52,227 nt of DNA from a virus. The translations under genes and the position numbers were made by a program. The first letter of the stretch is position 1; every line of letters begins with the position of its first letter. The stretch is taken from positions 1-52,227 of IMG/VR virus record IMGVR_UViG_3300042914_001648; one strand, given 5' to 3'. Positions 1-52,227 of this stretch are shown piece after piece. Below the pieces are notes generated by a model, which was given only the letters and a program-made list of their open reading frames with translations, did not search any database and had not been told where the DNA came from.

Positions 1-438
1 TCCCTATGAGGATCGCTGTAGTCACTTCCTTGTTCGGTGCGTATGACCCGCTTTCCCCACCGCCTGCGGGATTCGATGACGCCGTGTGCGTAACGGATTC
101 GCCGGATGATATCCCTGACGGGTGGCGCGTCGTCATGGAGGCACACCCTCTTGCCGACGATCCACGCCTGTTGAGTAAAGGCGCGAAGATGCAGCCGTGG
201 CGTTACACGGACTGTGACGCGGCGATTTACCTTGACGCATCCATCGAAGTAACTTCCCCAAATCTGCGCGCATGGGTAGAACCGCAACTAGCCGCTAATG
301 ATCTGGTTGTGTGGTCGCACCCGGAAGGTCGGACCTGTTATCGGGATGAGGCGGCGGTCTGTTGGGACTGGCCTAAATACTCGGGGTATGACTTGCGCGG
401 TCAGATCGCAGCGTATGAGGCAGACGGGATGCCTGCGG
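1..438. repeat. Left member of window-end overlap (allelic repeat)
   Basis: Bases 1-101 are identical to 51796-51896. Bases 102-311 are homologous to 51897-52100 but clearly diverged, with a net 6-base (two-codon) length difference. Bases 312-438 are again identical to 52101-52227, the last 127 bases of the window. The pattern fits one locus assembled twice from two alleles at the junction of a circular or terminally redundant genome. A real tandem duplication is the alternative. Confidence 0.85.
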
Positions 439-683
439 GTTGGGGCTTGTTCGCGTGCGGCATGATCGGCTGGCGATTCACAGACAAGGCTAAGGCGTTC
501 GGGGACGCGTGGCTAGGGGAGCAACATAAATGGTCGTGCCAGGATCAAGTATCTTTACCTTACCTACTGTGGCGTGAGGGCAAGGCGTTCGGTATCTGGC
601 CTGCGAACCAGTACCAGAACCCGCACATTCGCGTCAGGTGGGATCGGCGTGCCGTGGGCAACGGACCTACCGCAACACATTAG
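6..683 (+). CDS. DUF616/TOD1-MUCI70-like glycosyltransferase (copy A)
   Basis: A 225-residue protein that I match to the DUF616 (TOD1/MUCI70) glycosyltransferase-like family from its motif order: KMQPWRY then YLDASIEV (about residues 61-83), WSHPEGRTCYRDEA (about 103-116), QIAAYEADGMP followed by a GLF-type segment (about 131-150), and CQDQVSLPYLLWR (about 178-190). In the family these form a GT-A-like fold; YLDAS takes the place of the metal-binding DxD region. Donor and acceptor are unknown. The ATG at 6 is preceded only by tccct, which equals the end of the hydroxylase gene at 51235-51804, so the upstream part is cut by the window edge. A second, divergent copy starts at 51801. Family call moderately sure; role in decorating virion or host glycans is inference. 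Confidence 0.72.
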   Translation: MRIAVVTSLFGAYDPLSPPPAGFDDAVCVTDSPDDIPDGWRVVMEAHPLADDPRLLSKGAKMQPWRYTDCDAAIYLDASIEVTSPNLRAWVEPQLAANDLVVWSHPEGRTCYRDEAAVCWDWPKYSGYDLRGQIAAYEADGMPAGWGLFACGMIGWRFTDKAKAFGDAWLGEQHKWSCQDQVSLPYLLWREGKAFGIWPANQYQNPHIRVRWDRRAVGNGPTATH

Positions 684-870: not shown

Positions 871-1524
871 TCAGCCCCACAGTAAATGGTCGGGGTGCTT
901 ATGCCCCCAATGATGCGCGCACAGGCTATCGGGGTGCGGCTCACCCCACGGCGTATCAGTCCACGGATTGCAGTACCTAGCGGGTAGCACAGGCGTATCC
1001 GGGTACTGCTCTTCCTTGATCCGGGTCAAGAGTTTGGGTCCGGTCTGCCAGTCAATCGAACGCGTTTCCTTAGCGATGTTGTCGGGGATCGCGTCAATCA
1101 CCGCACGAATAAGCGGCTGCTCCGGGGCACTCATCATCCAAGCGTTAGAGAGCAGCCAATCGTCAATCTCATTCGCAAGCAGAACATCCATCTGCGTGAA
1201 CTCGTCAGGGATCGGGCGCAGCGGTTCCATATCGGTGTTCACATACAACCCGCCGTAACGGTACAGCAGTTCGTAACCTAACAAGTCTGCTTGCGCTACC
1301 TGAATGATGCTGGTTGTCTTTGCCGCTCCCGCAATCGGGGTCCACTCATTTCCGCAGTTCACGAACAGCGATTCGTTAATGAGTGGTGGGCGGTTGTCGT
1401 AACCCCATTCGATCACTTGCCAGTCAGGGTTCAGTTCCTTCCAACGTTCGCCGTACTGAACGTACTCGTTGGGCATTTCGCGTGGTCCGAACCATGCGCG
1501 GTGTATCAGTTTGGGGATCGCCAC
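871..1524 (-). CDS. GT32-like glycosyltransferase (Gly_transf_sug/OCH1-like)
   Basis: 217 residues beginning with IPKLIHRAWFG, the usual opening of the sugar-binding DXD (GT32) family, and carrying the nucleotide-sugar segment QADLLGYELLYRYGGLYVNTDME around residues 78-100. Family members transfer a sugar from a nucleotide donor through a GGxYxDxD metal site. Here the first acidic residue is Asn (N96) while D98 and E100 remain, so metal binding may be altered. The gene overlaps the end of the epimerase gene by 19 bases and is last in a four-gene minus-strand run, which suggests coupled translation and a shared pathway. Acceptor unknown; family call good. Confidence 0.78.
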   Translation of the reverse strand: MAIPKLIHRAWFGPREMPNEYVQYGERWKELNPDWQVIEWGYDNRPPLINESLFVNCGNEWTPIAGAAKTTSIIQVAQADLLGYELLYRYGGLYVNTDMEPLRPIPDEFTQMDVLLANEIDDWLLSNAWMMSAPEQPLIRAVIDAIPDNIAKETRSIDWQTGPKLLTRIKEEQYPDTPVLPARYCNPWTDTPWGEPHPDSLCAHHWGHKHPDHLLWG

Positions 1525-2522
1525 GTTACGCCCTCATTCTCACGGAACCAGTTAACGGTACGTTCGATGCCTGCCGCGAGCGGCGTGAAAGCATCCGGGG
1601 TGACACCGATCAGGTGCAGAGTCTCCACGTTCGCTGACACGACGGTGCCCAACTGCTTGACGGCGCGGTTCACGGCGATGCGGTCTAGCGCAGGCATCGC
1701 TTCCATCACGGCATCCTGCACGACCTTGACCCGCTGCGGGGTGGACAGGGGACCGCCTTCCGGTTCCCCGGCACGCATCGGCACGGATTCGATAACGGCT
1801 GTGGGGATGAACCGCTGTACCGCGTGCGCCACATCCAACACGGTTAACGGTTCACGGTTGCCTACGTCAATGGGGTGGGCTGGCACTACATCGTCGCTAG
1901 CGGCTTCCAGAGCCGTGACGAATACGGCTGCTACGTCGCCTACCCATACGGTGTCGCTGAACTGTGTACCGCCTCCGTAGAGCCGCATAGGGTCACCTGA
2001 GAGCGCGGAGCATACGAACGAGGGCACGATCTTGCGTACCTTGCTAGGTCCGTAGGGTGCGGGTGCTGACTGGCGTGGACCGTAAGCGTTCATCGGCCTA
2101 ACGGCGGTAACGCGTAACCCTCTGTCCTCGCGGTACATCTTCACGAACTCTTCCCCGCACGCCTTAGTGAGACAGTAGGTGCCGCGCCCGATCCCTGAGT
2201 TCCCGACAGCCGCGAACACCACGGGCAGGTTGTAGCGGCTAGCAGCCTCGAAAACGTTAAGGGTGCCGATGATGTTTGTCTCCGCAGCAGGTCGCGGGTT
2301 GTCGATAGTCTCAGCCGTGCCCAACACAGCCGCTAGATGAATGATGCCGTCAACGTGGGCGGCGAGTTCATGGACGATGGTTTCGTCCCGCACATCACCC
2401 AACAGCGTGTTAACGCCACGGGATTTGTGATCTAGGATCAGCGGTTTGTGACCGCGCCTGTGTAGTTCGTCCTGAATCCAACTGCCAATGAATCCGTTAC
2501 CGCCCGTGATTCCTACGATCAC
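1506..2522 (-). CDS. NAD-dependent nucleotide-sugar epimerase/dehydratase (SDR)
   Basis: 338 residues of an extended short-chain dehydrogenase. The N-terminus has the Rossmann motif GGNGFIG (7-13); the catalytic YxxxK appears as YCLTK (Y116, K120), preceded by a Ser-containing strand; RPMNAYGPRQ is the usual substrate-domain segment. Members interconvert UDP-, GDP- or dTDP-sugars; the exact substrate cannot be read from the sequence. It overlaps the glycosyltransferase gene upstream by 4 bases (ATGA) and the GT32 gene downstream by 19 bases, so it likely prepares a donor sugar for them. Confidence 0.82.
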   Translation of the reverse strand: MIVGITGGNGFIGSWIQDELHRRGHKPLILDHKSRGVNTLLGDVRDETIVHELAAHVDGIIHLAAVLGTAETIDNPRPAAETNIIGTLNVFEAASRYNLPVVFAAVGNSGIGRGTYCLTKACGEEFVKMYREDRGLRVTAVRPMNAYGPRQSAPAPYGPSKVRKIVPSFVCSALSGDPMRLYGGGTQFSDTVWVGDVAAVFVTALEAASDDVVPAHPIDVGNREPLTVLDVAHAVQRFIPTAVIESVPMRAGEPEGGPLSTPQRVKVVQDAVMEAMPALDRIAVNRAVKQLGTVVSANVETLHLIGVTPDAFTPLAAGIERTVNWFRENEGVTWRSPN

Positions 2523-3154
2523 CGCATACCCCTCACGTTACGTTCCGCTGCTGCCATGTCCGTGCGTAGTGTGATGTTGTCCCCGTGGATGACGTATTCA
2601 TAGTCGATATCGGGGGAGGCGTGGAAGCGCGCCCCGTTACGCGCGGCGTCAATCCAAAACATCCAATCTTCACAGACCATATCCCGGTATGGTGACCGCT
2701 CCCAGACCCAACGCCGGAACGGTGAACCTGAGAACACTAGGTTGTGTGGGGATTTGAGTATGTCTGCGCGGGTTGCGTGACGCGCTGGCAACCATTGACC
2801 CGACAACTGAATCCCGAACATATAAACGTCTGCGTCTGTGTGGTCTAGGTTGTTGAGTGCGTGAGGGAAAATCACATCATCTATGTCCATCTTGCACACC
2901 CACTCCGTGTTAACGGCGGCGATAGCCTCATTCACTAACACCTGAGGGTGGTTAACGAACGTGCCGTGAGCCTGCTTAAATACCGCGCTAGACAAATGCA
3001 CTTCACCTAGTGTGGCTATTGCTGACGGCACATCATCGGTCACGATCAGTACCCGGTCAGGTTGCCGTTCCAGCATTGTGACGGCGCGCATCCAACGCGG
3101 CAGGAACGCCCGGTATTTGTCCCCGTAAGCGACGGCTACTAGGCCGATGCTCAC
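2519..3154 (-). CDS. GT-A type glycosyltransferase
   Basis: About 211 residues with a GT2-like layout: an N-terminal nucleotide-binding strand (IGLVAVAYGD), then CKMDIDDVIFP, in which DIDD fits the metal/nucleotide-sugar motif, and a later CEDWMFW acidic segment resembling the catalytic-base ED. Two in-frame GTG codons exist, at 3166 and 3154. I prefer 3154 because its GTGA overlaps the stop of the upstream gene, the coupling style used throughout this genome. It sits between a peptidoglycan-binding protein and an epimerase, consistent with surface or virion glycan work. Substrate unknown. Confidence 0.68.
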   Translation of the reverse strand: MSIGLVAVAYGDKYRAFLPRWMRAVTMLERQPDRVLIVTDDVPSAIATLGEVHLSSAVFKQAHGTFVNHPQVLVNEAIAAVNTEWVCKMDIDDVIFPHALNNLDHTDADVYMFGIQLSGQWLPARHATRADILKSPHNLVFSGSPFRRWVWERSPYRDMVCEDWMFWIDAARNGARFHASPDIDYEYVIHGDNITLRTDMAAAERNVRGMR

Positions 3155-3396
3155 AGCGCGTCCCACGTTTTACGGTCGATAACACCTGTCACCTTGAGCC
3201 CCTTACTGTCCTGAAACTGTCTGACGGAGAGGGCTACTGTGCGACGGTATCTGCCGTCTAGTGGCCCGTCGTAGCAGCCGTGTTGCGCTAGCCGCGACTG
3301 TGCCCACAGCACAAGTGTCCCCCTGTCGTCTAGGTCAAGGGGATGCCTGTAGTCGGGGCGGTCTTTGGGCGCGATGCTGCCGCTTGTGTGTGTCAT
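3151..3396 (-). CDS. Peptidoglycan-binding domain protein
   Basis: About 81 residues from the ATG at 3396. The C-terminal two thirds form a PG_binding_1 domain: VLWAQSRLAQHGCYDGPLDGRYRRTVALSVRQFQDSKGLKVTGVIDRKTWDAL has the usual QxxLxxxGxxxGxxDGxxGxxTxxAVxxFQxxxGLxxxGxxxxxTWxxL spacing. No catalytic domain is attached, which is unusual unless it works as a wall-targeting partner for another enzyme. The frame stays open upstream to 3471, so a longer N-terminus is possible. It is first in the minus-strand sugar run and divergent from the lysis genes at 3481. Confidence 0.72.
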   Translation of the reverse strand: MTHTSGSIAPKDRPDYRHPLDLDDRGTLVLWAQSRLAQHGCYDGPLDGRYRRTVALSVRQFQDSKGLKVTGVIDRKTWDAL

Positions 3397-5932: not shown

Positions 5933-6706
5933 GTGCCTTACTTCACGCAGAACAGGGAAATGCGCCGTGATGGTGTGTGGAACTTTACGCTTCCGGCGTG
6001 GGTAGTTGAGTTACCAGACGGTTCGCATTTTAACGTGTGCCCTAATGCGGGTGCGTGCGCGAAGTTCTGCTACGCCCGTAACGGAACATATCTGTTCCCC
6101 AAGGTGCGCGGTAAGCATCTGTCTAATCTGCTGCTTGTGCGTGATAACCCTGATTGGGTGAACATCCTCATGGGTGAGTTACGGCATAAGCGATTCACGC
6201 AGACGGGTGTGCCGCGAGTGATACCGGGGCTAGACGACACCGGGCACCTGTCCCCGTGGGCGAAGCATTGGCTCATGGTGGGTGGGGCGGCTGTGCGTAT
6301 CCATGACTCCGGGGACTTTTTCTCCCGCGACTACCTGAACGGGTGGAGGCAAATCGCGAAGCGCAACCCGCACATCCTGTTCTATGCGTACACGAAAGAG
6401 GTCGCGATGGTGAAGGATGCGGGACTGAACCCGGCAAGTAACTTCCTTACCTGTTACAGCATGGGTGGGCGGCAGGATCATCTGATTGACAGGGCCACGG
6501 ATAGGCACGCAGATGTGTTCCCTGACGAACAGGCGTTAACGGATGCGGGTTATTTCAATCAGCACGCGAGTGACCTGCTGTGTGTTCTCGCGCCTAGTGA
6601 CCGAATAGGCATCCCACAAAACAACATCCCCCACTTCCGTAAGGGTCTAGCGGGTCGCACGTTCTCGCAGGCGCAACAGGACCGGGCACGGGTAGTGGTG
6701 GCATAG
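5933..6706 (+). CDS. GP88-family protein
   Basis: 257 residues from a GTG. The cluster CPNAGACAKFCYAR (C36, C42, C46) and the following LVRDNPDWVN..., HDSGDFFSRDYLNGWRQIAKRNPHILFYAYTKE and LTCYSMGG stretches match the actinophage gene-product-88 family. The family has a CxxxxxCxxxC motif and a barrel-like pattern reminiscent of radical SAM enzymes, but no activity is known to me. The stop overlaps the WhiB-like gene start by one base. A tight link with an iron-sulfur regulator gene makes an Fe-S or redox role worth considering (inference). Confidence 0.75.
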   Translation: MPYFTQNREMRRDGVWNFTLPAWVVELPDGSHFNVCPNAGACAKFCYARNGTYLFPKVRGKHLSNLLLVRDNPDWVNILMGELRHKRFTQTGVPRVIPGLDDTGHLSPWAKHWLMVGGAAVRIHDSGDFFSRDYLNGWRQIAKRNPHILFYAYTKEVAMVKDAGLNPASNFLTCYSMGGRQDHLIDRATDRHADVFPDEQALTDAGYFNQHASDLLCVLAPSDRIGIPQNNIPHFRKGLAGRTFSQAQQDRARVVVA

Positions 6707-6984
6707 TGGCGATAAAGGCAGCACGCATCCGGCTCATAGAACAAGCCGCCTGCCGGGAAGCAGACCCCTATATTTTCAACTTCACAGACGGACCATTCGT
6801 GTTCATGGCTCTGCGCTACTGCGACCGATGCCCGGTAGTGCGAGAGTGCGACGAATTCGTGCGCCCACGGAAATCCTTTTACGACGGTGTAGCGGCAGGC
6901 AAGGCGTGGCGTAACGGTGAGCGTGTAGAACCTGACAGCGATGGGCGTAGAATCCCCACCGCTCGCGGTAAACTAACAGAATGA
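6706..6984 (+). CDS. WhiB-like Fe-S transcription factor
   Basis: 92 residues from a GTG. Four cysteines are spaced as in the WhiB/Wbl family: C16, C39, C42 and C48 (CRExDP... then YCDRCPVVREC), which would ligate a 4Fe-4S cluster and allow contact with the host principal sigma factor. The usual GVWGG turn is altered to GVAAGKAW, followed by a basic C-terminus. Phage WhiB proteins can repress host whiB genes or redirect transcription; it is a candidate regulator for the TTGAC-type promoters in this genome, but that link is unproven. Confidence 0.88.
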   Translation: MAIKAARIRLIEQAACREADPYIFNFTDGPFVFMALRYCDRCPVVRECDEFVRPRKSFYDGVAAGKAWRNGERVEPDSDGRRIPTARGKLTE

Positions 6985-21392: not shown

Positions 21393-21539
21393 GTGATTTG
21401 TGCTGATTGCAAGGCGGGTGGCGATCTTAACGCGGCGGGTGATGCGGCGGCTGCCGCGCTGTGTCATGGGCGGTGCCGTTGGGCTGCTGGTAGTTGTTTC
21501 TGTCAGCACGCGGTAGGCAGGTATGGACGACTCTCCTAG
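21393..21539 (+). CDS. Cys/His microprotein (48 aa)
   Basis: 48 residues from a GTG: CADCKAGGDLNAAGDAAAAALCHGRC and CFCQHAVGRYG give a likely zinc site (CxxC with CxxxC and CxCxH). Proteins of this CADCxAG...C-CxH type are frequent in actinophage genomes. It overlaps the glycosyltransferase gene by 17 bases. Function unknown. Confidence 0.6.
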   Translation: MICADCKAGGDLNAAGDAAAAALCHGRCRWAAGSCFCQHAVGRYGRLS

Positions 21540-22584
21540 CGTCGCGTTCATTAGCGGCGACTGGAACACACAGGTAGACCCACCTGAGGCTAACGGGTGC
21601 GCGTATTACCGTCAGGTGCTTCCGTGTCGGCTGCTACAGGCGCAGGGGTTTGATGCGATGGTGGGGCAGCCGCGACCGCATGATCCGATGGGGATAGGTT
21701 TGGCGAAGGATGACGGTGGCCTATTCGGATTCGACGTTAACGTTTACAAACTTATGATGCACGCGTCCGTGCCACAACTGTTCCATGTGATGCAGGCTAA
21801 GGGGCAGACGGTCGCGGTAGATATTGACGATTTCCATTTTGATCTGCACGCGGAGAACATCGCCTACGCTGCGACGAACCCGCACACGAATCCGACTAAT
21901 AACCGCATGTGGTATGAGATTGGGATACGGCAGGCAGATTTCGTTACGGTGTCTACGGCGTTCCTCGCGGATTTCTACGGGCGTAGGTGTCGGGATGTGC
22001 GTTTGGTTCGTAACGCTGTGGAGACTGACAGGTTTACTCCCGTGCAGCAGCCTGAGTCGCCTACGTTCGGATGGTTGGGTGGCACGCTGTGGCGATCGGG
22101 CGATATCGAAATGTTGCGAGACTGGTTGCCCGATTTCGCGAAGACACACGGAATCCGTGTACATCATGCGGGGCACATCCCCGGTGACCCCCGGCATTTT
22201 GCCGTGCGCGCGGGATTGACGCGGGTGGATACCGGACCCATGCAAACCATTAGCAATGTGCCTCAGATGATGCACTCGTTTCATGTGGGGCTTGTGCCGC
22301 TCGCGCCGGGAGCGTTCAACGAAGCAAAGAGTTACCTGAAGGGGCTTGAGTATGCGGCGGCGGGTATCCCGTTCATCGCCACCCCTACAGAGGAATACAG
22401 GGTGCTAGCGGCTGCGGGAGTCGGCAGGCTGGCATCTACCCCGGATGAGTGGCGCGACCACGCTACGGCGCTCCTAGACCCGTCTACGCGTATCGCGGAG
22501 GCGCAGCGGAACCGGGATATCGTGCGAGAACAATTCGATATCAAAGGGATGGGGGAGGCGTGGGCTACCGCGATCACTACCTAA
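21523..22584 (+). CDS. GT4-like glycosyltransferase
   Basis: 353 residues with a GT-B layout. N-terminal domain: GCAYYRQVLPCRLLQAQGFDAMV, then VDIDDFHFD and the linker NAVETDRFTP. C-terminal domain: TFGWLGGTLWRSGDIEMLRDWL, then LVPLAPGAFNEAKSYLKGLEYAAAGIPFIATPTEEYRVL, in which N-E-x-K...E-Y-x-A-x-G-I-P corresponds to the donor-binding E(x7)E element. Similar proteins are common in tailed actinophages, often next to a methyltransferase as here. It likely adds a sugar to a virion protein or host glycan; acceptor unknown. Confidence 0.82.
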   Translation: MDDSPSVAFISGDWNTQVDPPEANGCAYYRQVLPCRLLQAQGFDAMVGQPRPHDPMGIGLAKDDGGLFGFDVNVYKLMMHASVPQLFHVMQAKGQTVAVDIDDFHFDLHAENIAYAATNPHTNPTNNRMWYEIGIRQADFVTVSTAFLADFYGRRCRDVRLVRNAVETDRFTPVQQPESPTFGWLGGTLWRSGDIEMLRDWLPDFAKTHGIRVHHAGHIPGDPRHFAVRAGLTRVDTGPMQTISNVPQMMHSFHVGLVPLAPGAFNEAKSYLKGLEYAAAGIPFIATPTEEYRVLAAAGVGRLASTPDEWRDHATALLDPSTRIAEAQRNRDIVREQFDIKGMGEAWATAITT

Positions 22585-23165
22585 ACCACGCAGGCTGCAT
22601 TGCGGTGCAGAATGAGGCGACGCTACATGCACTAGACCGCAGTATTCCGGCGCGTCCCCTAGCGATGCTGCTAATCGGTGTAGGTAACGGCGGCGTCGTG
22701 GAAATCTGGCGCAAATCCCTACCGGACGGCTCTACCGTTACCGCGCTGGACTCTGATCCTGCCGCCGTCGAACTCCCCGGACTAGGTGTTATCGGATGCG
22801 ATACGAAAGACCGTATCGCTATACGACACGCGCTCAAGGGTCAATGGTTCGATGTAGTGATCGACGCGACGGGAATGATGCAGCCCTACGCGTGGCCTTT
22901 CCTGCGCCCCGGTGGGATTCTCATTTACGAAACCTATAATCCTGAAATGATAATGATGCTGGCACGCGACCTGGCACTAGGTGACGATTCGTGGCTGCCC
23001 ATCGAAGAGGTCATGCGCGTAGATGTGTACCAGTCGTGTGCGGTCGTGGAGAAACGGAACCCTAGGGTTGTGCCCTACCTTGACGTAATGACCGGGAATT
23101 TCGCTGACGTTACCCCGGAGAGTGTGTATTACGCGGCGGGGGCGAAGCGCGTTATCCCCGCGTAG
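22560..23165 (+). CDS. SAM-dependent methyltransferase-like protein
   Basis: 201 residues from GTG 22560, chosen for its GGGGGAGGC ribosome site; the frame is open further upstream but only as an Arg-rich shadow of the glycosyltransferase gene. LLIGVGNGGVVEIWRKSLPDGSTVTALDSDPAAVEL is a Rossmann SAM site (GxGxGG plus acidic end of strand 2), with VVIDATGMMQPYAWPFLRPGGILIYETYNPEM as strands 4-5. The layout recalls sugar O-methyltransferases; it may cap the sugar added by the adjoining glycosyltransferase (inference). Confidence 0.72.
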   Translation: MGYRDHYLNHAGCIAVQNEATLHALDRSIPARPLAMLLIGVGNGGVVEIWRKSLPDGSTVTALDSDPAAVELPGLGVIGCDTKDRIAIRHALKGQWFDVVIDATGMMQPYAWPFLRPGGILIYETYNPEMIMMLARDLALGDDSWLPIEEVMRVDVYQSCAVVEKRNPRVVPYLDVMTGNFADVTPESVYYAAGAKRVIPA

Positions 23166-25575: not shown

Positions 25576-26586
25576 TTACAGGTTCAGCCATTGCGGGTGA
25601 TCCAACGTCCACCGCACGGTACGTTCCAACGATTGTTCTAGCGATAGCGGTGCTTTCCATCCGGCGTCGGCGATCTTCGCCCCGTCAAGGGCGTAACGCA
25701 GGTCGTGACCGGGACGCGAGGAATGGAAGTCAACAAGGTCATAGCGCAGCGGCTTGCCTAGACAGTCAGCGACCATCTGCGCCATTTCCAGATTCGTTAC
25801 TTCACGCTCTCCCACAACGTGCCATTTCGCCGGGGTGGGCGACTCCCAAAATGTCGGGGCGTCCTGTGTGAGCGCGAACAGTAGAGCGTCTGCCTGATTC
25901 CTGGCGTGCAGGTAGAACCGTGAACCGATGACGCCTTCCGGGGACGCGTGGATCGGGACGGGCTCTCCCGCTAGTACTCGTTTCATCACCATTGGCATGA
26001 ACTTTTCGGGGTCTTGCATTTCCCCAATAATGTTCATCGTGTTCGTGATGATGAGCGGCATATCGTAGGTGCGCCAGTACGCGTACCCGATGGACTCTTG
26101 CGCAGCCTTCGACGCGCTGTACGGGTTCGATGGGAAGTACTGATCGGTCCACTCGCGGTGTGCGTGTCCGGGCGCGGCAGGTCCGTATACTTCATCGGTC
26201 GAAACATGGATGAGTCGCTTAATGTCGCGGCGTCGCGCGAACTCAAAAACGTTAACGGCTAGTGCGACGTTGTTTTGGATGAACGGTGCGGGGTGCGTGA
26301 TCGACCTGTCTACATGCGACTCTGACGCGACGTTCAGGATGTAGTCGATCTCCCCGATCTCAGAGTTCAGTACGGCGCTGAATGGTGCGGTCAAATCATG
26401 CCGAATAATTGTTACCCGTGAGTAGTCGTCGTCCAATCCCGCCACGGCGTAACGGATGCGGTCTGTGATACCGCGATGCTGGAACGAAACAAGGCATACG
26501 ATCTCATCGGTCGTGTTCGCTAGCAGATGCCTGAGAACATGCGATCCAACGAACCCTGACGCCCCTGTGAGTAGTACCCGTGCCAC
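25576..26586 (-). CDS. dTDP-glucose 4,6-dehydratase-like SDR
   Basis: 336 residues. GASGFVG (8-14) binds NAD; NVASESHVDRSI (85-96), HVSTDEVYG (127-135) with D131 and E132, and YSASK (Y156, K160) are the diagnostic RmlB-type motifs, where Asp/Glu catalyse water loss after C4 oxidation. Such enzymes make dTDP-4-keto-6-deoxyglucose, a rhamnose precursor; GDP- or UDP-linked substrates cannot be excluded. It lies directly after the large terminase and before the lipoprotein, on the same transcript. It could supply a deoxy-sugar to the phage glycosyltransferases. Confidence 0.8.
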   Translation of the reverse strand: MARVLLTGASGFVGSHVLRHLLANTTDEIVCLVSFQHRGITDRIRYAVAGLDDDYSRVTIIRHDLTAPFSAVLNSEIGEIDYILNVASESHVDRSITHPAPFIQNNVALAVNVFEFARRRDIKRLIHVSTDEVYGPAAPGHAHREWTDQYFPSNPYSASKAAQESIGYAYWRTYDMPLIITNTMNIIGEMQDPEKFMPMVMKRVLAGEPVPIHASPEGVIGSRFYLHARNQADALLFALTQDAPTFWESPTPAKWHVVGEREVTNLEMAQMVADCLGKPLRYDLVDFHSSRPGHDLRYALDGAKIADAGWKAPLSLEQSLERTVRWTLDHPQWLNL

Positions 26587-48476: not shown

Positions 48477-48806
48477 ATGGCTACTGACTACAAAGTATTG
48501 GGCCAGTCTGCCCCTTCTGCAACAACGCCCACGAATCTTTACACGGTGCCCTCTGCGACTAAGGCTGTCGTTTCGACATTGTTCGTGTGTAATCGGGGAG
48601 CAGCAGCGGCAACGTTTCGCATTTCGGTACGACCGGGCGGCGCTTCACAAGCCAATCAGCATTACATTGCTTACGATATTTCGATTGACGCTAACGCGAC
48701 CATTCCTTTCACAACTGGTATCACTATCGGTGCGTCAGATGTTTTGACTGTCTATGCGTCTACGGGGGATATGTCATTCTCTGCGTTTGGATCGGAGATT
48801 ACCTGA
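48477..48806 (+). CDS. Small virion protein (fibre-associated)
   Basis: 109 residues. MATDYKVLGQSAPSATTPTNLYTVPSATKAVVSTLFVCNRGAAAATFRISVRPGG...AYDISIDANATIPFTTGITIGASDVLTVYASTGDMSFSAFGSEI is a small beta-sandwich typical of short virion proteins in aquatic phages (TLYTVPxxTxxVxxxxxVxNxxxxxxTxxV). Between fibre and adhesin genes; probably a tail-tip component. Confidence 0.75.
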   Translation: MATDYKVLGQSAPSATTPTNLYTVPSATKAVVSTLFVCNRGAAAATFRISVRPGGASQANQHYIAYDISIDANATIPFTTGITIGASDVLTVYASTGDMSFSAFGSEIT

Positions 48807-50074
48807 TGAGTATTGAGCAGATTCCTGCGCGTCAGGCGGCTGGCGGTGCGGTTATTTCATGGAATCCTATTCCCGCTACAGGAACTTACGCCTTGCAGGA
48901 ACCCCTTGATGCTGGACTGTATCGTGTCGTAACGGATACTACGCAGAGCATTGCATCAGCGAGCGTTAAGATTCTAGGCTCATCCGGTTATCAGTTCGGT
49001 AGCATCGCTATTCGTGGTGGATTGGGTTATGTTGCTGTCGCTGATACGGCAGCATCTTTCAGCGTTAACGCTGGAACGTTCCCTTTGCTTATCGGGTTTG
49101 AGAAGTTGGAAACATACGCGCTGCGTAGTGCCCCAACGAATGTTTCTGCCGATTACACTAGCGCCTCCGCGCCCTACACGTTTACCGCGTCGTACACCGC
49201 TCCCCCCGGCGCAGCGAGTATCGGCATCTTTTGGCCTAACGGCACGTTTACAAACTACGGTGCTGCAAGTGGATCATTTTCCGGTTCTCTTGTCGGGATA
49301 ACACCTACTAGTGGCTCTACGGTGTCGTTCATTATCGCCGCTAGCGACGCTAATGGAATCTTTGGTATCGGCGCTTCCGCATCTGAGCCGTTCCCGTATT
49401 ATCTGTTTACGTCGTCTGGTACTTACACGCCTCCCCCTGGCAGTAGTTTCGCTGATGTGTGGGTTGCTGGCGGTGGCGGTGCTGGCGGCGGCGCGACTAG
49501 CAGTTATTCGCGCGGCGGCGGTGGCGCTGCTGGCACCCTTGTCCACTCTGCGTCTGTTGCTACTAGTGCATCTGTATCCGTGACTATCGGCGCTGGTGGC
49601 ACGGCGAACGCGAGCGGTAGCGGTGGCACGGGCGGCGCGTCAAGTTTCGGCGGCGTATCCGCTAGTGGAGGTGTAGGCGGCGCGGTCAGCGGTTCTAACG
49701 GTCTTAATGGTGAGGTAGGTAGCGGGGCGGGAGCGCCACCGAATCGCACAGGTGGCACGGCGACTATCGGTTTTGCGGGAGGTAACTCTAACTACGGTAG
49801 CGGCGGCGGCGGCGGCATGGGTGGCGCTGGCGCTAACGCAACGGGCGCATCCCCTAGCGTTACCCCCGGTGGCAGCGGATCGGTTGTCTCTAGTGTCACG
49901 ATCTCTAGCGGAGGAAACGGGGCGAACAGGTGGAGTCCGACCGGGTCGCTTGTGCAGGGTGGCGCTAATCCCGTTAGGGGCGGCGGCGGCGGTGGCGCGT
50001 CGAAGGCTACCGGGGCAAATGTCGCCGGATCGAACGGCACCGATGGGATCGTTCTCGTCAAGGCATTGTTCTAG
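48806..50074 (+). CDS. Glycine-rich tail adhesin
   Basis: 422 residues. Part 1 (1-110) attaches to the tail; part 2 (~115-200) is a fibronectin-like sandwich; from about 205 YYLFTSSGTYTPPPGSSFADVWVAGGGGAGGG starts the classic Gly-rich domain (runs GGGGAGGG, SRGGGGAAG, GSGGTGG, YGSGGGGGMGGAG, RGGGGGGAS). Such polyGly-II domains form the receptor-binding end of phage adhesins (T4-like gp38 type). It overlaps the previous gene by one base. High Ser/Thr content makes it a possible glycan-modified protein (inference). Confidence 0.82.
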   Translation: MSIEQIPARQAAGGAVISWNPIPATGTYALQEPLDAGLYRVVTDTTQSIASASVKILGSSGYQFGSIAIRGGLGYVAVADTAASFSVNAGTFPLLIGFEKLETYALRSAPTNVSADYTSASAPYTFTASYTAPPGAASIGIFWPNGTFTNYGAASGSFSGSLVGITPTSGSTVSFIIAASDANGIFGIGASASEPFPYYLFTSSGTYTPPPGSSFADVWVAGGGGAGGGATSSYSRGGGGAAGTLVHSASVATSASVSVTIGAGGTANASGSGGTGGASSFGGVSASGGVGGAVSGSNGLNGEVGSGAGAPPNRTGGTATIGFAGGNSNYGSGGGGGMGGAGANATGASPSVTPGGSGSVVSSVTISSGGNGANRWSPTGSLVQGGANPVRGGGGGGASKATGANVAGSNGTDGIVLVKALF

Positions 50075-50098: not shown

Positions 50099-50410
50099 AT
50101 GGCTATTTATGCTATTCACGACGGTAGCAACGTTGTTAATGTAGTCGTGGCAGATTCGTTAGAAAGCGCACAAGCCAATGCTGACGGCAATCTCCAAGTA
50201 GACGAAGTAACTGACGGCTTGGTCAGCGTAGGGTGGGAAGCGCACGACGGATACTGGCGTCCTCTTGCTACTTATCCTTCATGGGTTTGGAACGCTGATT
50301 CGCGCGAGTGGGAAGCGCCGATTCCAGAGCCGGAACCTACTGAGGAACTGCTGCATTATTGGGATGAAGATACCGTGTCGTGGGTCGCTTACGAAAGACC
50401 AGTAGGCTAA
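50099..50410 (+). CDS. Tail fibre-associated small protein
   Basis: 103 residues. DGYWRPLATYPSWVWNADSREWEAPIPEPEP...LLHYWDEDTVSWVAYERP shows two W-x-W repeats of the kind found in short proteins next to fibre genes of aquatic phages (YPSWxWNxxxxxWExPxPxP...YxWDExTxSW). May assist fibre assembly or bind sugar. Confidence 0.65.
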   Translation: MAIYAIHDGSNVVNVVVADSLESAQANADGNLQVDEVTDGLVSVGWEAHDGYWRPLATYPSWVWNADSREWEAPIPEPEPTEELLHYWDEDTVSWVAYERPVG

Positions 50411-50420
50411 CTTAAGCGCC

Positions 50421-51245
50421 ATGAAGGTTCACTTCATGGCTGGTATGCCACGTTCCGGCACGACGCTGCTTGCGTCTATTCTGAATCAGAATCCCGCCGT
50501 TTACTGTTCGCCCAATAGCCCTTTGTATGAGCATCTGCGAGATATTGACACGGCGAACTATGAGAGTTACCGCATGGGCGTGATGCAAGATTGTAAGCGC
50601 AGCCTGCTTAATGGAGCCATAGACAGTTTCTACAAACACAAAGATGCCGATGTGGTCATAGATAGGTCAAGGGTATGGGGCGTGCCCTACTACATGAGGT
50701 TGTTGCGTTATGCGCTAGGGATGAACAGCCCGAAGATACTTTGCCCAGTGCGACCATTAGCGGAAGTGGTCGCATCCTTCATCGTCAAAGCGCAGGCTAA
50801 TCCCAATAACTTCATAGACCGAAGCATGATGGAACAAGACTTTTTGCCCCTGTGGAGAAAGCCAATAAATGATGCGCGGGTGGATTGGTTGCTGAGTCCC
50901 AACAGCATGTTAGACACGGCGATACTGAGCGTGCATACGGCTCTAAGGTCTGAGGATAAGCATCTATTTCATGTGTTCTCCTATGACGATCTAGTCGGCA
51001 AGCCGGGTGACACGATGGACGCTATTTACGATTTTCTCGGGCTTGACAGTTTCTCGCATGATTACGCGCGCATCGCTAACACGGAACCTTACGACGATAT
51101 GAACGCGTTTGGCATCCCCGATCTGCACTCTGTCGATCACAAGATTCGTCGTAGCCGGGTGGAGCCGGAAACTGTTTTGTCTCAGTACGCATTAGAGCGA
51201 TGTGCTCTGGAAGACTTTTGGACGGGGAAACTTGATGACCGATAA
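50421..51245 (+). CDS. Sulfotransferase
   Basis: 274 residues. AGMPRSGTTLLASIL (7-21) is the 5'-phosphosulfate-binding loop (PxRSGTTxL) for PAPS; VVIDRSRVWGV and a later VFSYDDLVGKPGDTMDAIYDFLGL supply the second strand and the 3'-phosphate/helix signature. It transfers sulfate from PAPS to a hydroxyl, often on a sugar or Tyr. Followed by a 2OG hydroxylase and a glycosyltransferase, the context is surface or protein decoration. Acceptor not known. Confidence 0.82.
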   Translation: MKVHFMAGMPRSGTTLLASILNQNPAVYCSPNSPLYEHLRDIDTANYESYRMGVMQDCKRSLLNGAIDSFYKHKDADVVIDRSRVWGVPYYMRLLRYALGMNSPKILCPVRPLAEVVASFIVKAQANPNNFIDRSMMEQDFLPLWRKPINDARVDWLLSPNSMLDTAILSVHTALRSEDKHLFHVFSYDDLVGKPGDTMDAIYDFLGLDSFSHDYARIANTEPYDDMNAFGIPDLHSVDHKIRRSRVEPETVLSQYALERCALEDFWTGKLDDR

Positions 51246-51804
51246 CGATTTGCCGCTGGTGCAGCCGCGTTTAATAGCAGGCGCGATAGAAGTTTACGAC
51301 GATGCGTTTGACCCGGATAGTGCATTATTTCGACGCTTGATGGATACTGAAATGTGGGAGCGGTCGAAGGTCGGAACTGACAATGTTGTATCTGAGGTAC
51401 GCACTAGCAGTAACTACTTCCTGAGTTTGTCATCGCTGTCTAACCCGGTAGATGTATTCATGTTTGGTCGCACGCTGTATGCCTATCTTGATGATTACGG
51501 TAAGCGATACGATGTGGCGTTCGCAGGCATTGAGGATGTGTGCATTAACCGCTATCAGCCGGGGCAAAGTTACCGCAAGCATAGCGATGCTGGTCCGGGC
51601 TACAATCGCGTGATCTCGGCTTTGGTTTATCTTAACGATGTTGCATCCGGTGGCGAAACGGTATTCACGTTGTTTGATGAGGCTGTAACGCCTAGGGCTG
51701 GCAGGCTGGTTATCTTCCCGTCTAACTATGCGTATGCGCATGAGGCGCGACCCCCGGCTATGGGAATCAAGTATTCGTTAGCGGCGTGGGCGATTTCCCT
51801 ATGA
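51235..51804 (+). CDS. 2-oxoglutarate/Fe(II) oxygenase (prolyl 4-hydroxylase-like)
   Basis: 189 residues from ATG 51235 (GGGGAAACTTG upstream as ribosome site; overlaps the sulfotransferase stop). Iron ligands are H116 and D118 in YRKHSDAG and H169 in YAYAHEA; K179 in IKYSL is placed to bind 2-oxoglutarate. YLNDVASGGETVF is the usual P4H strand. It would hydroxylate a peptide side chain (Pro in the family), making an acceptor for glycosylation. Its last codons overlap the DUF616-like start, CTATGA. Confidence 0.84.
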   Translation: MTDNDLPLVQPRLIAGAIEVYDDAFDPDSALFRRLMDTEMWERSKVGTDNVVSEVRTSSNYFLSLSSLSNPVDVFMFGRTLYAYLDDYGKRYDVAFAGIEDVCINRYQPGQSYRKHSDAGPGYNRVISALVYLNDVASGGETVFTLFDEAVTPRAGRLVIFPSNYAYAHEARPPAMGIKYSLAAWAISL

Positions 51805-52227
51805 GGATCGCTGTAGTCACTTCCTTGTTCGGTGCGTATGACCCGCTTTCCCCACCGCCTGCGGGATTCGATGACGCCGTGTGCGTAACGGATTCGGCAA
51901 ACGGTATCCCTGACGGCTGGCGAACGGTAGCGCAAGAGGGCACGGATGATCCACGCCTAGACAGCAAGACCGCGAAGATGCAGCCGTGGCGTTACACGAA
52001 CTGTGACGCCGCTATCTACCTAGACGCATCCATCGAAGTAACATCCCCTGATCTCCGCGCATGGGTGGAATTGTTGCTCGCGAGGCATGACCTCATCGTA
52101 TGGTCGCACCCGGAAGGTCGGACCTGTTATCGGGATGAGGCGGCGGTCTGTTGGGACTGGCCTAAATACTCGGGGTATGACTTGCGCGGTCAGATCGCAG
52201 CGTATGAGGCAGACGGGATGCCTGCGG
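51796..52227. repeat. Right member of window-end overlap (allelic repeat)
   Basis: Partner of the repeat at 1-438. The identical right flank is exactly 127 bases and ends at the window end, which is what a de Bruijn-graph assembly with k=127 would leave at a branch point (inference). The central 204 bases differ from copy A at both silent and amino-acid-changing sites. Confidence 0.85.
51801..52227 (+). CDS. DUF616-like glycosyltransferase, copy B, cut by window end
   Basis: Partial gene. Translation starts MRIAVVTSLFGAYDPLSPPP as in copy A, differs around residues 33-100 (about two dozen substitutions and a two-residue deletion, YLDASIEV kept), then returns to identity from SHPEGRTCYRDE through DGMP. 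This allele follows the hydroxylase gene and overlaps it (CTATGA). If the genome is circular, its unseen 3' end would continue as in the first gene of the window. Confidence 0.72.
   Translation, partial: MRIAVVTSLFGAYDPLSPPPAGFDDAVCVTDSANGIPDGWRTVAQEGTDDPRLDSKTAKMQPWRYTNCDAAIYLDASIEVTSPDLRAWVELLLARHDLIVWSHPEGRTCYRDEAAVCWDWPKYSGYDLRGQIAAYEADGMPA

What the first reader, a model, noticed from the sequence alone, without database searches (positions are those of the whole stretch)
50421..52227. Hydroxylase, sulfotransferase and glycosyltransferase downstream of the adhesin: a possible virion decoration pathway
The Ser/Thr/Gly-rich adhesin and fibre genes are followed by a sulfotransferase, a prolyl-hydroxylase-like oxygenase and a DUF616-like glycosyltransferase, all overlapping or nearly so. 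A chain of hydroxylation, O-glycosylation and sulfation of a phage structural protein, or of a host glycan, would be a novel combination in a phage. DUF616-type enzymes are best known from plants.
Basis: inference. Interest (0 to 1): 0.8.

Follow-up and report, generated by a model that had tools for sequence, protein, structure and literature searches.

The report
Phage tail-adhesin sugar-decoration gene module
Right behind its tail adhesin gene this virus of bacteria (probably of actinobacteria) carries a sulfotransferase, a collagen-hydroxylase-like oxygenase and a sugar transferase that were exchanged between viruses together with the adhesin, so the virus probably decorates its own receptor-binding tail protein with modified sugars.

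Summary
The three genes are real and form one overlapping operon: PAPS-type sulfotransferase (50421-51245), prolyl-4-hydroxylase-type 2OG oxygenase (51235-51804) and a TOD1/MUCI70-like glycosyltransferase (51801-52227, cut by the record end). The record is a circle cut inside that glycosyltransferase: the complete copy lies at 6-683, followed by two more glycosyltransferases and a nucleotide-sugar epimerase (871-3166, minus strand). Relatives show a constant glycosyltransferase core and a variable slot between adhesin and glycosyltransferase that holds sulfotransferase+oxygenase (window, L003), sulfotransferase only (L010), two oxygenase-type genes (L012, L016, L028) or nothing (L005, L007). 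Its main idea, tail decoration, gains support: adhesin, its small partner, sulfotransferase, oxygenase and glycosyltransferase were exchanged recently as one block (dS 0-0.21 against 0.7-2.3 for most flanking genes); in this family the sulfotransferase accompanies one adhesin type only; and in 10 of 11 sulfotransferase lineages, many from unrelated phages, it sits beside tail-fibre or adhesin genes, mostly with a 2OG oxygenase nearby. The acceptor is not shown: virion protein is preferred, host surface glycan is the main rival. A published survey says the role of phage sulfotransferases is unclear; this gives a testable one.

The parts
48806..50074 (+). Gly/Ser/Thr-rich tail adhesin (422 aa), presumed acceptor
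   Evidence: PF21722 Gly_rich_2 3e-16, phrog_863; 22% Gly, 23% Ser+Thr
50099..50410 (+). small tail protein of unknown function (103 aa); similar small proteins follow adhesins in most of the family
   Evidence: phrog_7759 4e-6; 99.7% nt identical to L003
50421..51245 (+). PAPS-type sulfotransferase
   Evidence: PF13469 1.2e-13, phrog_27463 5e-62; P10/R11/G13/T15 P-loop and R111/S119 invariant in 16 full-length homologues
51235..51804 (+). prolyl-4-hydroxylase-type 2OG-Fe(II) oxygenase
   Evidence: PF13640 3e-15; best solved relative 3itq (prolyl 4-hydroxylase) 7.6e-9; HSD motif at 116-118, H169, K179
51801..52227 (+). TOD1/MUCI70-like glycosyltransferase, 5' part, cut by the record end
6..683 (+). 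complete version of the same glycosyltransferase (225 aa); the circle closes here
   Evidence: AF2 pLDDT 87; GT-A fold
871..1524 (-). DXD-type glycosyltransferase
   Evidence: PF04488 1.7e-11
1506..2522 (-). NAD-dependent nucleotide-sugar epimerase/dehydratase
   Evidence: PF01370 4e-36; phrog_540
2519..3166 (-). family-2-like glycosyltransferase
   Evidence: phrog_9549 1e-21

Best explanation
This is a modular glycan-decoration unit tied to the tail adhesin. A conserved core (TOD1/MUCI70-like GT-A transferase, DXD transferase, family-2-like transferase, nucleotide-sugar epimerase) makes or adds a sugar chain. A variable slot between the adhesin partner gene and the core supplies tailoring enzymes, here a sulfotransferase that most likely sulfates the glycan (or a tyrosine) and a P4H-type oxygenase that hydroxylates a side chain or sugar. 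The most likely acceptor is the co-transferred adhesin, modified in the cytoplasm during late infection; the effect would be a changed receptor-binding or stability surface of the tail tip. Shown by sequence: enzyme families, active-site residues, operon overlap, block exchange with the adhesin, recurrence beside tail fibres. Inferred: co-expression, acceptor, order of steps, biological effect.
For: Catalytic residues intact and dN/dS about 0.13-0.28 for ST, oxygenase and GT. Overlapping reading frames. dS window vs L003: adhesin 0.18, ORF103 0, ST 0.16, oxygenase 0.14, GT 0.13-0.21, against 1.25 (distal tail), 0.69 (ORF109), 0.96-2.3 (other sugar genes) and 1.3 (portal); ORF174 is also low (0.11). 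The ST-only genome carries the same adhesin type (80% identical) with ST only 67% identical, so the link persists over time; relatives with other adhesins lack this ST. In 10 of 11 ST lineages (60% identity clusters) ST lies within about two genes of a fibre/adhesin gene, often with a 2OG oxygenase: L022 kelch fibre-ST-P4H; L118 fibre-ST-Oxy_5-fibre; L119 Gly-rich fibre-ST; S-SRM01 RCC1-propeller-ST-GT. No strongly hydrophobic segment in ST, oxygenase or the four sugar enzymes. Published precedents: glycans on mycobacteriophage virion proteins (Che8, Rita; PMC11256854 citing Freeman 2023); viral prolyl 4-hydroxylase with peptide substrates (PBCV-1, cited in PMC9301287); mimivirus L230 hydroxylates and glucosylates collagen-like proteins (PMC9614988).
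Against: No acceptor evidence. The tail-fibre region is also where phages collect host-interaction genes of any kind, and the adjacency count has no matched control. The core sugar genes (871-3166) did not move with the adhesin block. Cytosolic transferases could equally build a host-surface or small-molecule glycan. Classification of several neighbours as adhesins (kelch, RCC1, repeat proteins) is itself inference.
Confidence: 0.5

Rival explanations
1. The enzymes remodel the host cell surface glycan (receptor masking, superinfection exclusion) and sit next to the adhesin because receptor binding and receptor modification co-evolve.
For: Epimerase plus several transferases resemble cyanophage clusters proposed to alter capsular polysaccharide or O antigen and to include hydroxylating 2OG enzymes (PMC7824862). 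Adhesin-type linkage is also expected under co-evolution.
Against: Genes lie in one overlapping series behind tail genes, presumably late; no membrane-spanning segment in the enzymes checked; recurrent placement inside fibre modules.
Confidence: 0.25
2. One reading: the oxygenase makes hydroxyproline/hydroxylysine in the adhesin, the GT glycosylates that hydroxyl, the ST sulfates the glycan.
For: Same operon; oxygenase-positive adhesins (window, L003) have prolines, for example at 211 (TPPPG) and 311, that the oxygenase-negative L010 adhesin lacks. Mimivirus L230 is a precedent for hydroxylation then glycosylation.
Against: GT occurs without oxygenase (L005, L007, L010), ST without oxygenase (L010), oxygenase without ST (L012, L016, L028), so no step depends on the others across the family. 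Three adhesins are too few for the proline comparison.
Confidence: 0.12
3. Unrelated cargo: ST and oxygenase are independent auxiliary metabolic genes caught in a hypervariable slot, acting on host metabolites or host proteins.
For: Slot contents vary freely; ST and oxygenase have lower GC (50-51%) than the genome (57%); 2OG oxygenases are abundant in phages (430 of 50,697 records match at 1e-5; 24 in S-SCSM1, PMC9602691).
Against: Block exchange with the adhesin and ST/adhesin-type link; repeated ST+oxygenase co-location with fibres in unrelated phages.
Confidence: 0.13

Closest known systems
Synechococcus phage S-SRM01 glyco-tail region (ST QPX48310, GT, epimerase)
   Same: homologous ST (31% id) directly after an RCC1-propeller protein and before GT and nucleotide-sugar epimerase; PF13759 oxygenase and further putative transferases nearby
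   Different: a Kyanoviridae cyanophage (240 kb); different oxygenase family and transferases; function untested
Mycobacteriophage virion glycosylation (Che8, Rita)
   Same: actinophage-encoded glycosyltransferases acting on virion proteins (PMC11256854)
   Different: capsid is the reported acceptor; no sulfotransferase or oxygenase is mentioned in the passages read
Mimivirus L230 and PBCV-1 prolyl 4-hydroxylase
   Same: virus-encoded 2OG hydroxylases with virion or viral peptide substrates, L230 also glycosylating (PMC9614988, PMC9301287)
   Different: L230 is one fused protein acting on collagen-like chains; the adhesin here is not collagen-like
Bacterial/collagen prolyl 4-hydroxylases (PDB 3itq, 5hv0)
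   Same: sequence similarity 8e-9, HxD...H with Lys ten residues on
   Different: substrate here unknown
TOD1/MUCI70 (DUF616) and GT6 glycosyltransferases
   Same: GT-A fold; TM 0.83 to a viral TOD1/MUCI70 domain; GT6 enzymes (blood-group GTA/GTB, BoGT6a) at Z 12-13
   Different: window protein scores below the PF04765 cut-off; no member found in 84,980 bacterial/archaeal genomes with the two patterns used
OM43 phage metagenomic genomes with PF13469 and PF13640
   Same: same two enzyme families in one phage lineage; the paper states that phage ST function is unclear (PMC10580990)
   Different: not described as adjacent or tail-linked in the passages read

Membership tests
PAPS-dependent sulfotransferase (PF13469) | profile score above curated cut-off | tested here: met
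   52.3 bits vs 27
PAPS-dependent sulfotransferase (PF13469) | 5' P-loop (PRSGTT) and 3'-phosphate Arg/Ser | tested here: met
   P10, R11, G13, T15, R111, S119 invariant in 16 full-length homologues
PAPS-dependent sulfotransferase (PF13469) | sulfate transfer and acceptor | not testable with these tools
   needs enzyme assay
Prolyl-4-hydroxylase-type 2OG oxygenase (PF13640) | profile score, HxD...H iron triad, Lys at H+10 for 2OG | tested here: met
   57.2 bits vs 27; HSD at 116-118, H169, K179; invariant in four homologues
Prolyl-4-hydroxylase-type 2OG oxygenase (PF13640) | peptidyl-proline substrate | not testable with these tools
   sequence similarity only (3itq)
TOD1/MUCI70 (PF04765) | score above Pfam cut-off | tested here: not met
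   18.3 and 14.6 bits vs 21.4; a 29%-identical homologue, L139, scores 56.5
TOD1/MUCI70 (PF04765) | shared GT-A fold | tested here: met
   TM 0.83 to a viral TOD1/MUCI70 domain, 0.79 to Cellulophaga phage phi18:2 GT
GT6 family | GT-A fold similarity | tested here: met
   Z 12-13, 180-198 residues aligned, 9-16% identity; fold only, no sequence membership claimed
Virion-glycosylating phage | glycan on virion protein | not testable with these tools
   needs mass spectrometry
Mimivirus L230-type hydroxylase-transferase | fused hydroxylase and transferase; collagen Gly-X-Y acceptor | tested here: not met
   separate genes; adhesin is a Gly_rich_2 protein without collagen repeats

The most novel reading that the evidence does not exclude
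Phages of several unrelated lineages carry an exchangeable kit that puts sulfated, oxidised glycans on the tail adhesin, and the kit is swapped together with the adhesin to change host recognition: to my knowledge the first sulfated phage virion protein, and a function for phage sulfotransferases.
Probability: 0.35. Interest if true: 0.85.

Novelty: new variant of a known kind. Interest (0 to 1): 0.58.

Why it matters
A published survey calls the role of phage sulfotransferases unclear, and phage 2OG oxygenases are usually filed as metabolic genes. The block exchange with the adhesin and the repeated placement beside tail fibres turn this into a testable claim: post-translational decoration of receptor-binding proteins with sulfated glycans, which would bear on host range and receptor recognition.

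Tried and rejected
Fixed three-step pathway: rejected as obligatory because all partial combinations exist. A second, tandem GT gene: rejected, every relative record has one GT and the two window ends behave as strain variants of one gene. A second sulfotransferase family in the L132/L143 slot (PKTGTSS...REP motifs, between Gly-rich fibre and GT): not confirmed; no Pfam, PHROGs, NCBIfam or PDB sequence match, PF03567 negative, AF2 model failed at pLDDT 33; left as a motif-only suggestion. PDB sequence search with the GT profile gave nothing. GT in genome contigs: none. tblastn of the truncated GT in phage records: none. ST matches to tyrosine sulfotransferases and NoeE cover only the P-loop and do not fix the acceptor. 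DNA modification by this GT/oxygenase: considered unlikely, the oxygenase is P4H-type, not TET/JBP or AlkB. Matched control for ST-fibre adjacency: not done.

Full report
What is there. The window is a complete IMG/VR record of 52,227 bp. At its end lie three overlapping plus-strand genes behind a Gly-rich adhesin (48806-50074) and a small tail protein (50099-50410): a sulfotransferase (50421-51245), a 2OG-Fe(II) oxygenase (51235-51804) and a glycosyltransferase from 51801 that the record end truncates. Families are clear for the first two: Sulfotransfer_3 52 bits vs cut-off 27 and phrog_27463 5e-62; 2OG-FeII_Oxy_3 57 bits vs 27, with prolyl 4-hydroxylase 3itq the best solved relative at 7.6e-9. 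The oxygenase has HSD, a distal His and a Lys ten residues after it, the arrangement of collagen prolyl 4-hydroxylases (the comparison rests on established knowledge of that family). The sulfotransferase keeps P10/R11/G13/T15 of the PRSGTT loop and R111/S119 in all 16 full-length homologues.

The glycosyltransferase. PF04765 (TOD1/MUCI70) is only a weak match for the window protein (18.3 and 14.6 bits, cut-off 21.4), but a 29%-identical phage homologue (L139) scores 56.5 bits, and an AlphaFold2 model (pLDDT 87) matches a viral TOD1/MUCI70 domain with TM 0.83 and a Cellulophaga phage transferase with 0.79. Among solved structures the GT6 group (blood-group transferases, BoGT6a) is closest (Z 12-13). 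So it is a GT-A fold transferase related to TOD1/MUCI70; donor and acceptor are unknown.

The record closes on itself. Window 1-683 is the same junction and the same gene: TCCCTATGAGG at both places, identical over the first 60 nt of the gene, 86% overall, with the difference concentrated around nt 120-180 and 240-300. The relative L003 has one GT that matches the end version in its first part and the start version afterwards, all 14 relative records have exactly one GT, and the relative of 54.4 kb (L010) has overlapping ends. The window is therefore most likely a circle opened inside a strain-polymorphic gene, and the module continues with a DXD transferase, an epimerase and a family-2-like transferase on the minus strand (871-3166), as in L003, L005 and others.

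A constant core and a variable slot. In this phage family the GT is nearly always followed by the three minus-strand sugar genes. What lies between the adhesin partner gene and the GT varies: ST+oxygenase (window, L003), ST only (L010, L009), two oxygenase-type genes (L012, L016/L025, L028; the second one is assigned by PHROGs only, phrog_2954), nothing (L004, L005, L007). This speaks against an obligatory chain in which each step feeds the next.

Link to the adhesin. Synonymous divergence between window and L003 is 0.18 (adhesin), 0 (ORF103), 0.16 (ST), 0.14 (oxygenase) and 0.13-0.21 (GT), but 1.25 in the distal tail gene, 0.69 in ORF109, 0.96-2.3 in the minus-strand sugar genes and 1.3 in the portal gene; ORF174 is low too (0.11). 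So adhesin to GT was exchanged recently as a block, while dN/dS of 0.13-0.28 for ST, oxygenase and GT indicates selection to keep function. The ST-only phage L010 carries the same adhesin type (80% identical) although its ST has diverged to 67%, whereas relatives with other adhesins lack this ST. That is a link between ST and adhesin type, with only three ST-bearing genomes in the family whose adhesin can be read.

The pattern recurs elsewhere. ST homologues fall into 11 clusters at 60% identity. In ten, ST lies beside, or within about two genes of, a fibre or adhesin gene: kelch-type fibre-ST-P4H followed by a cytidylyltransferase-like gene in marine virus AG-345-O18; fibre-DUF6445-ST-fibre in AG-345-L05; fibre-ST-Oxy_5 oxygenase-fibre in L118; Gly-rich fibre-ST in L119 with two oxygenases upstream; RCC1 propeller-ST-GT-epimerase in S-SRM01; kelch-like repeats around ST in S-SKS1; Gly-rich/ORF103-type next to ST in L111; repeat adhesins in the L106 and L115 groups. 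Only S-SCSM1 breaks the rule. No matched control was run, and calling some neighbours adhesins is inference.

Mechanism proposed. The core transferases and epimerase provide a sugar chain; ST sulfates it (or tyrosine) and the oxygenase hydroxylates a side chain or sugar; the acceptor is most likely the adhesin that travels with the genes. No strongly hydrophobic segment was found in these enzymes, so a cytosolic acceptor is natural, and their place behind tail genes suggests late expression (inference). A host-surface glycan as acceptor remains the main rival. The host is probably an actinobacterium, since a WhiB-type gene is present (PF02467, 25.2 bits vs 23.6), a marker used for actinophages (PMC10202952).

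Known or new. Single elements are known: virion glycosylation in mycobacteriophages (PMC11256854), viral hydroxylases for viral peptides (PMC9301287; PMC9614988), ST genes in phages with a role stated to be unclear (PMC10580990), many 2OG oxygenases in cyanophages (PMC9602691), sugar clusters thought to modify host polysaccharide (PMC7824862). I found no description of the tail-linked, exchangeable ST/oxygenase/GT arrangement in the papers searched, a limited library. I rate it a new variant of a known kind.

Noticed in passing
1-683 and 51801-52227: Both ends of the record hold versions of one glycosyltransferase gene that differ mainly in a short N-terminal segment (50% identity at nt 120-180), i.e. 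a strain-polymorphic hot spot at which the assembly broke.
   Followed up: yes
21523-23165 and 25576-26586: A second sugar locus in the head/packaging part: group-1-like glycosyltransferase (phrog_7162) with an overlapping methyltransferase-like ORF, and a nucleotide-sugar epimerase (phrog_540) next to the terminase genes.
   Followed up: partly
L132:3495-4193, L143:1031-1729: Unassigned 232-aa protein with PKTGTSS / REP motifs reminiscent of another sulfotransferase family, again between a Gly-rich fibre and a glycosyltransferase (TOD1-like in L132, family 2 in L143).
   Followed up: partly
L012:1830-2459, L016:3051-3551, L028:535-1023: Second protein beside the oxygenase (phrog_2954, labelled 'ferrochelatase'); phrog_3531 seems to fuse this type with a P4H-type domain, so the 'ferrochelatase' label looks wrong.
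   Followed up: no
48806-50074: Adhesins of oxygenase-bearing phages (window, L003) have extra prolines, for example at 211 and 311, compared with the oxygenase-free L010 adhesin: candidate hydroxylation sites, three sequences only.
   Followed up: partly
6706-6984: WhiB-like transcription factor gene, a marker of actinophages (PF02467, just above cut-off).
   Followed up: yes
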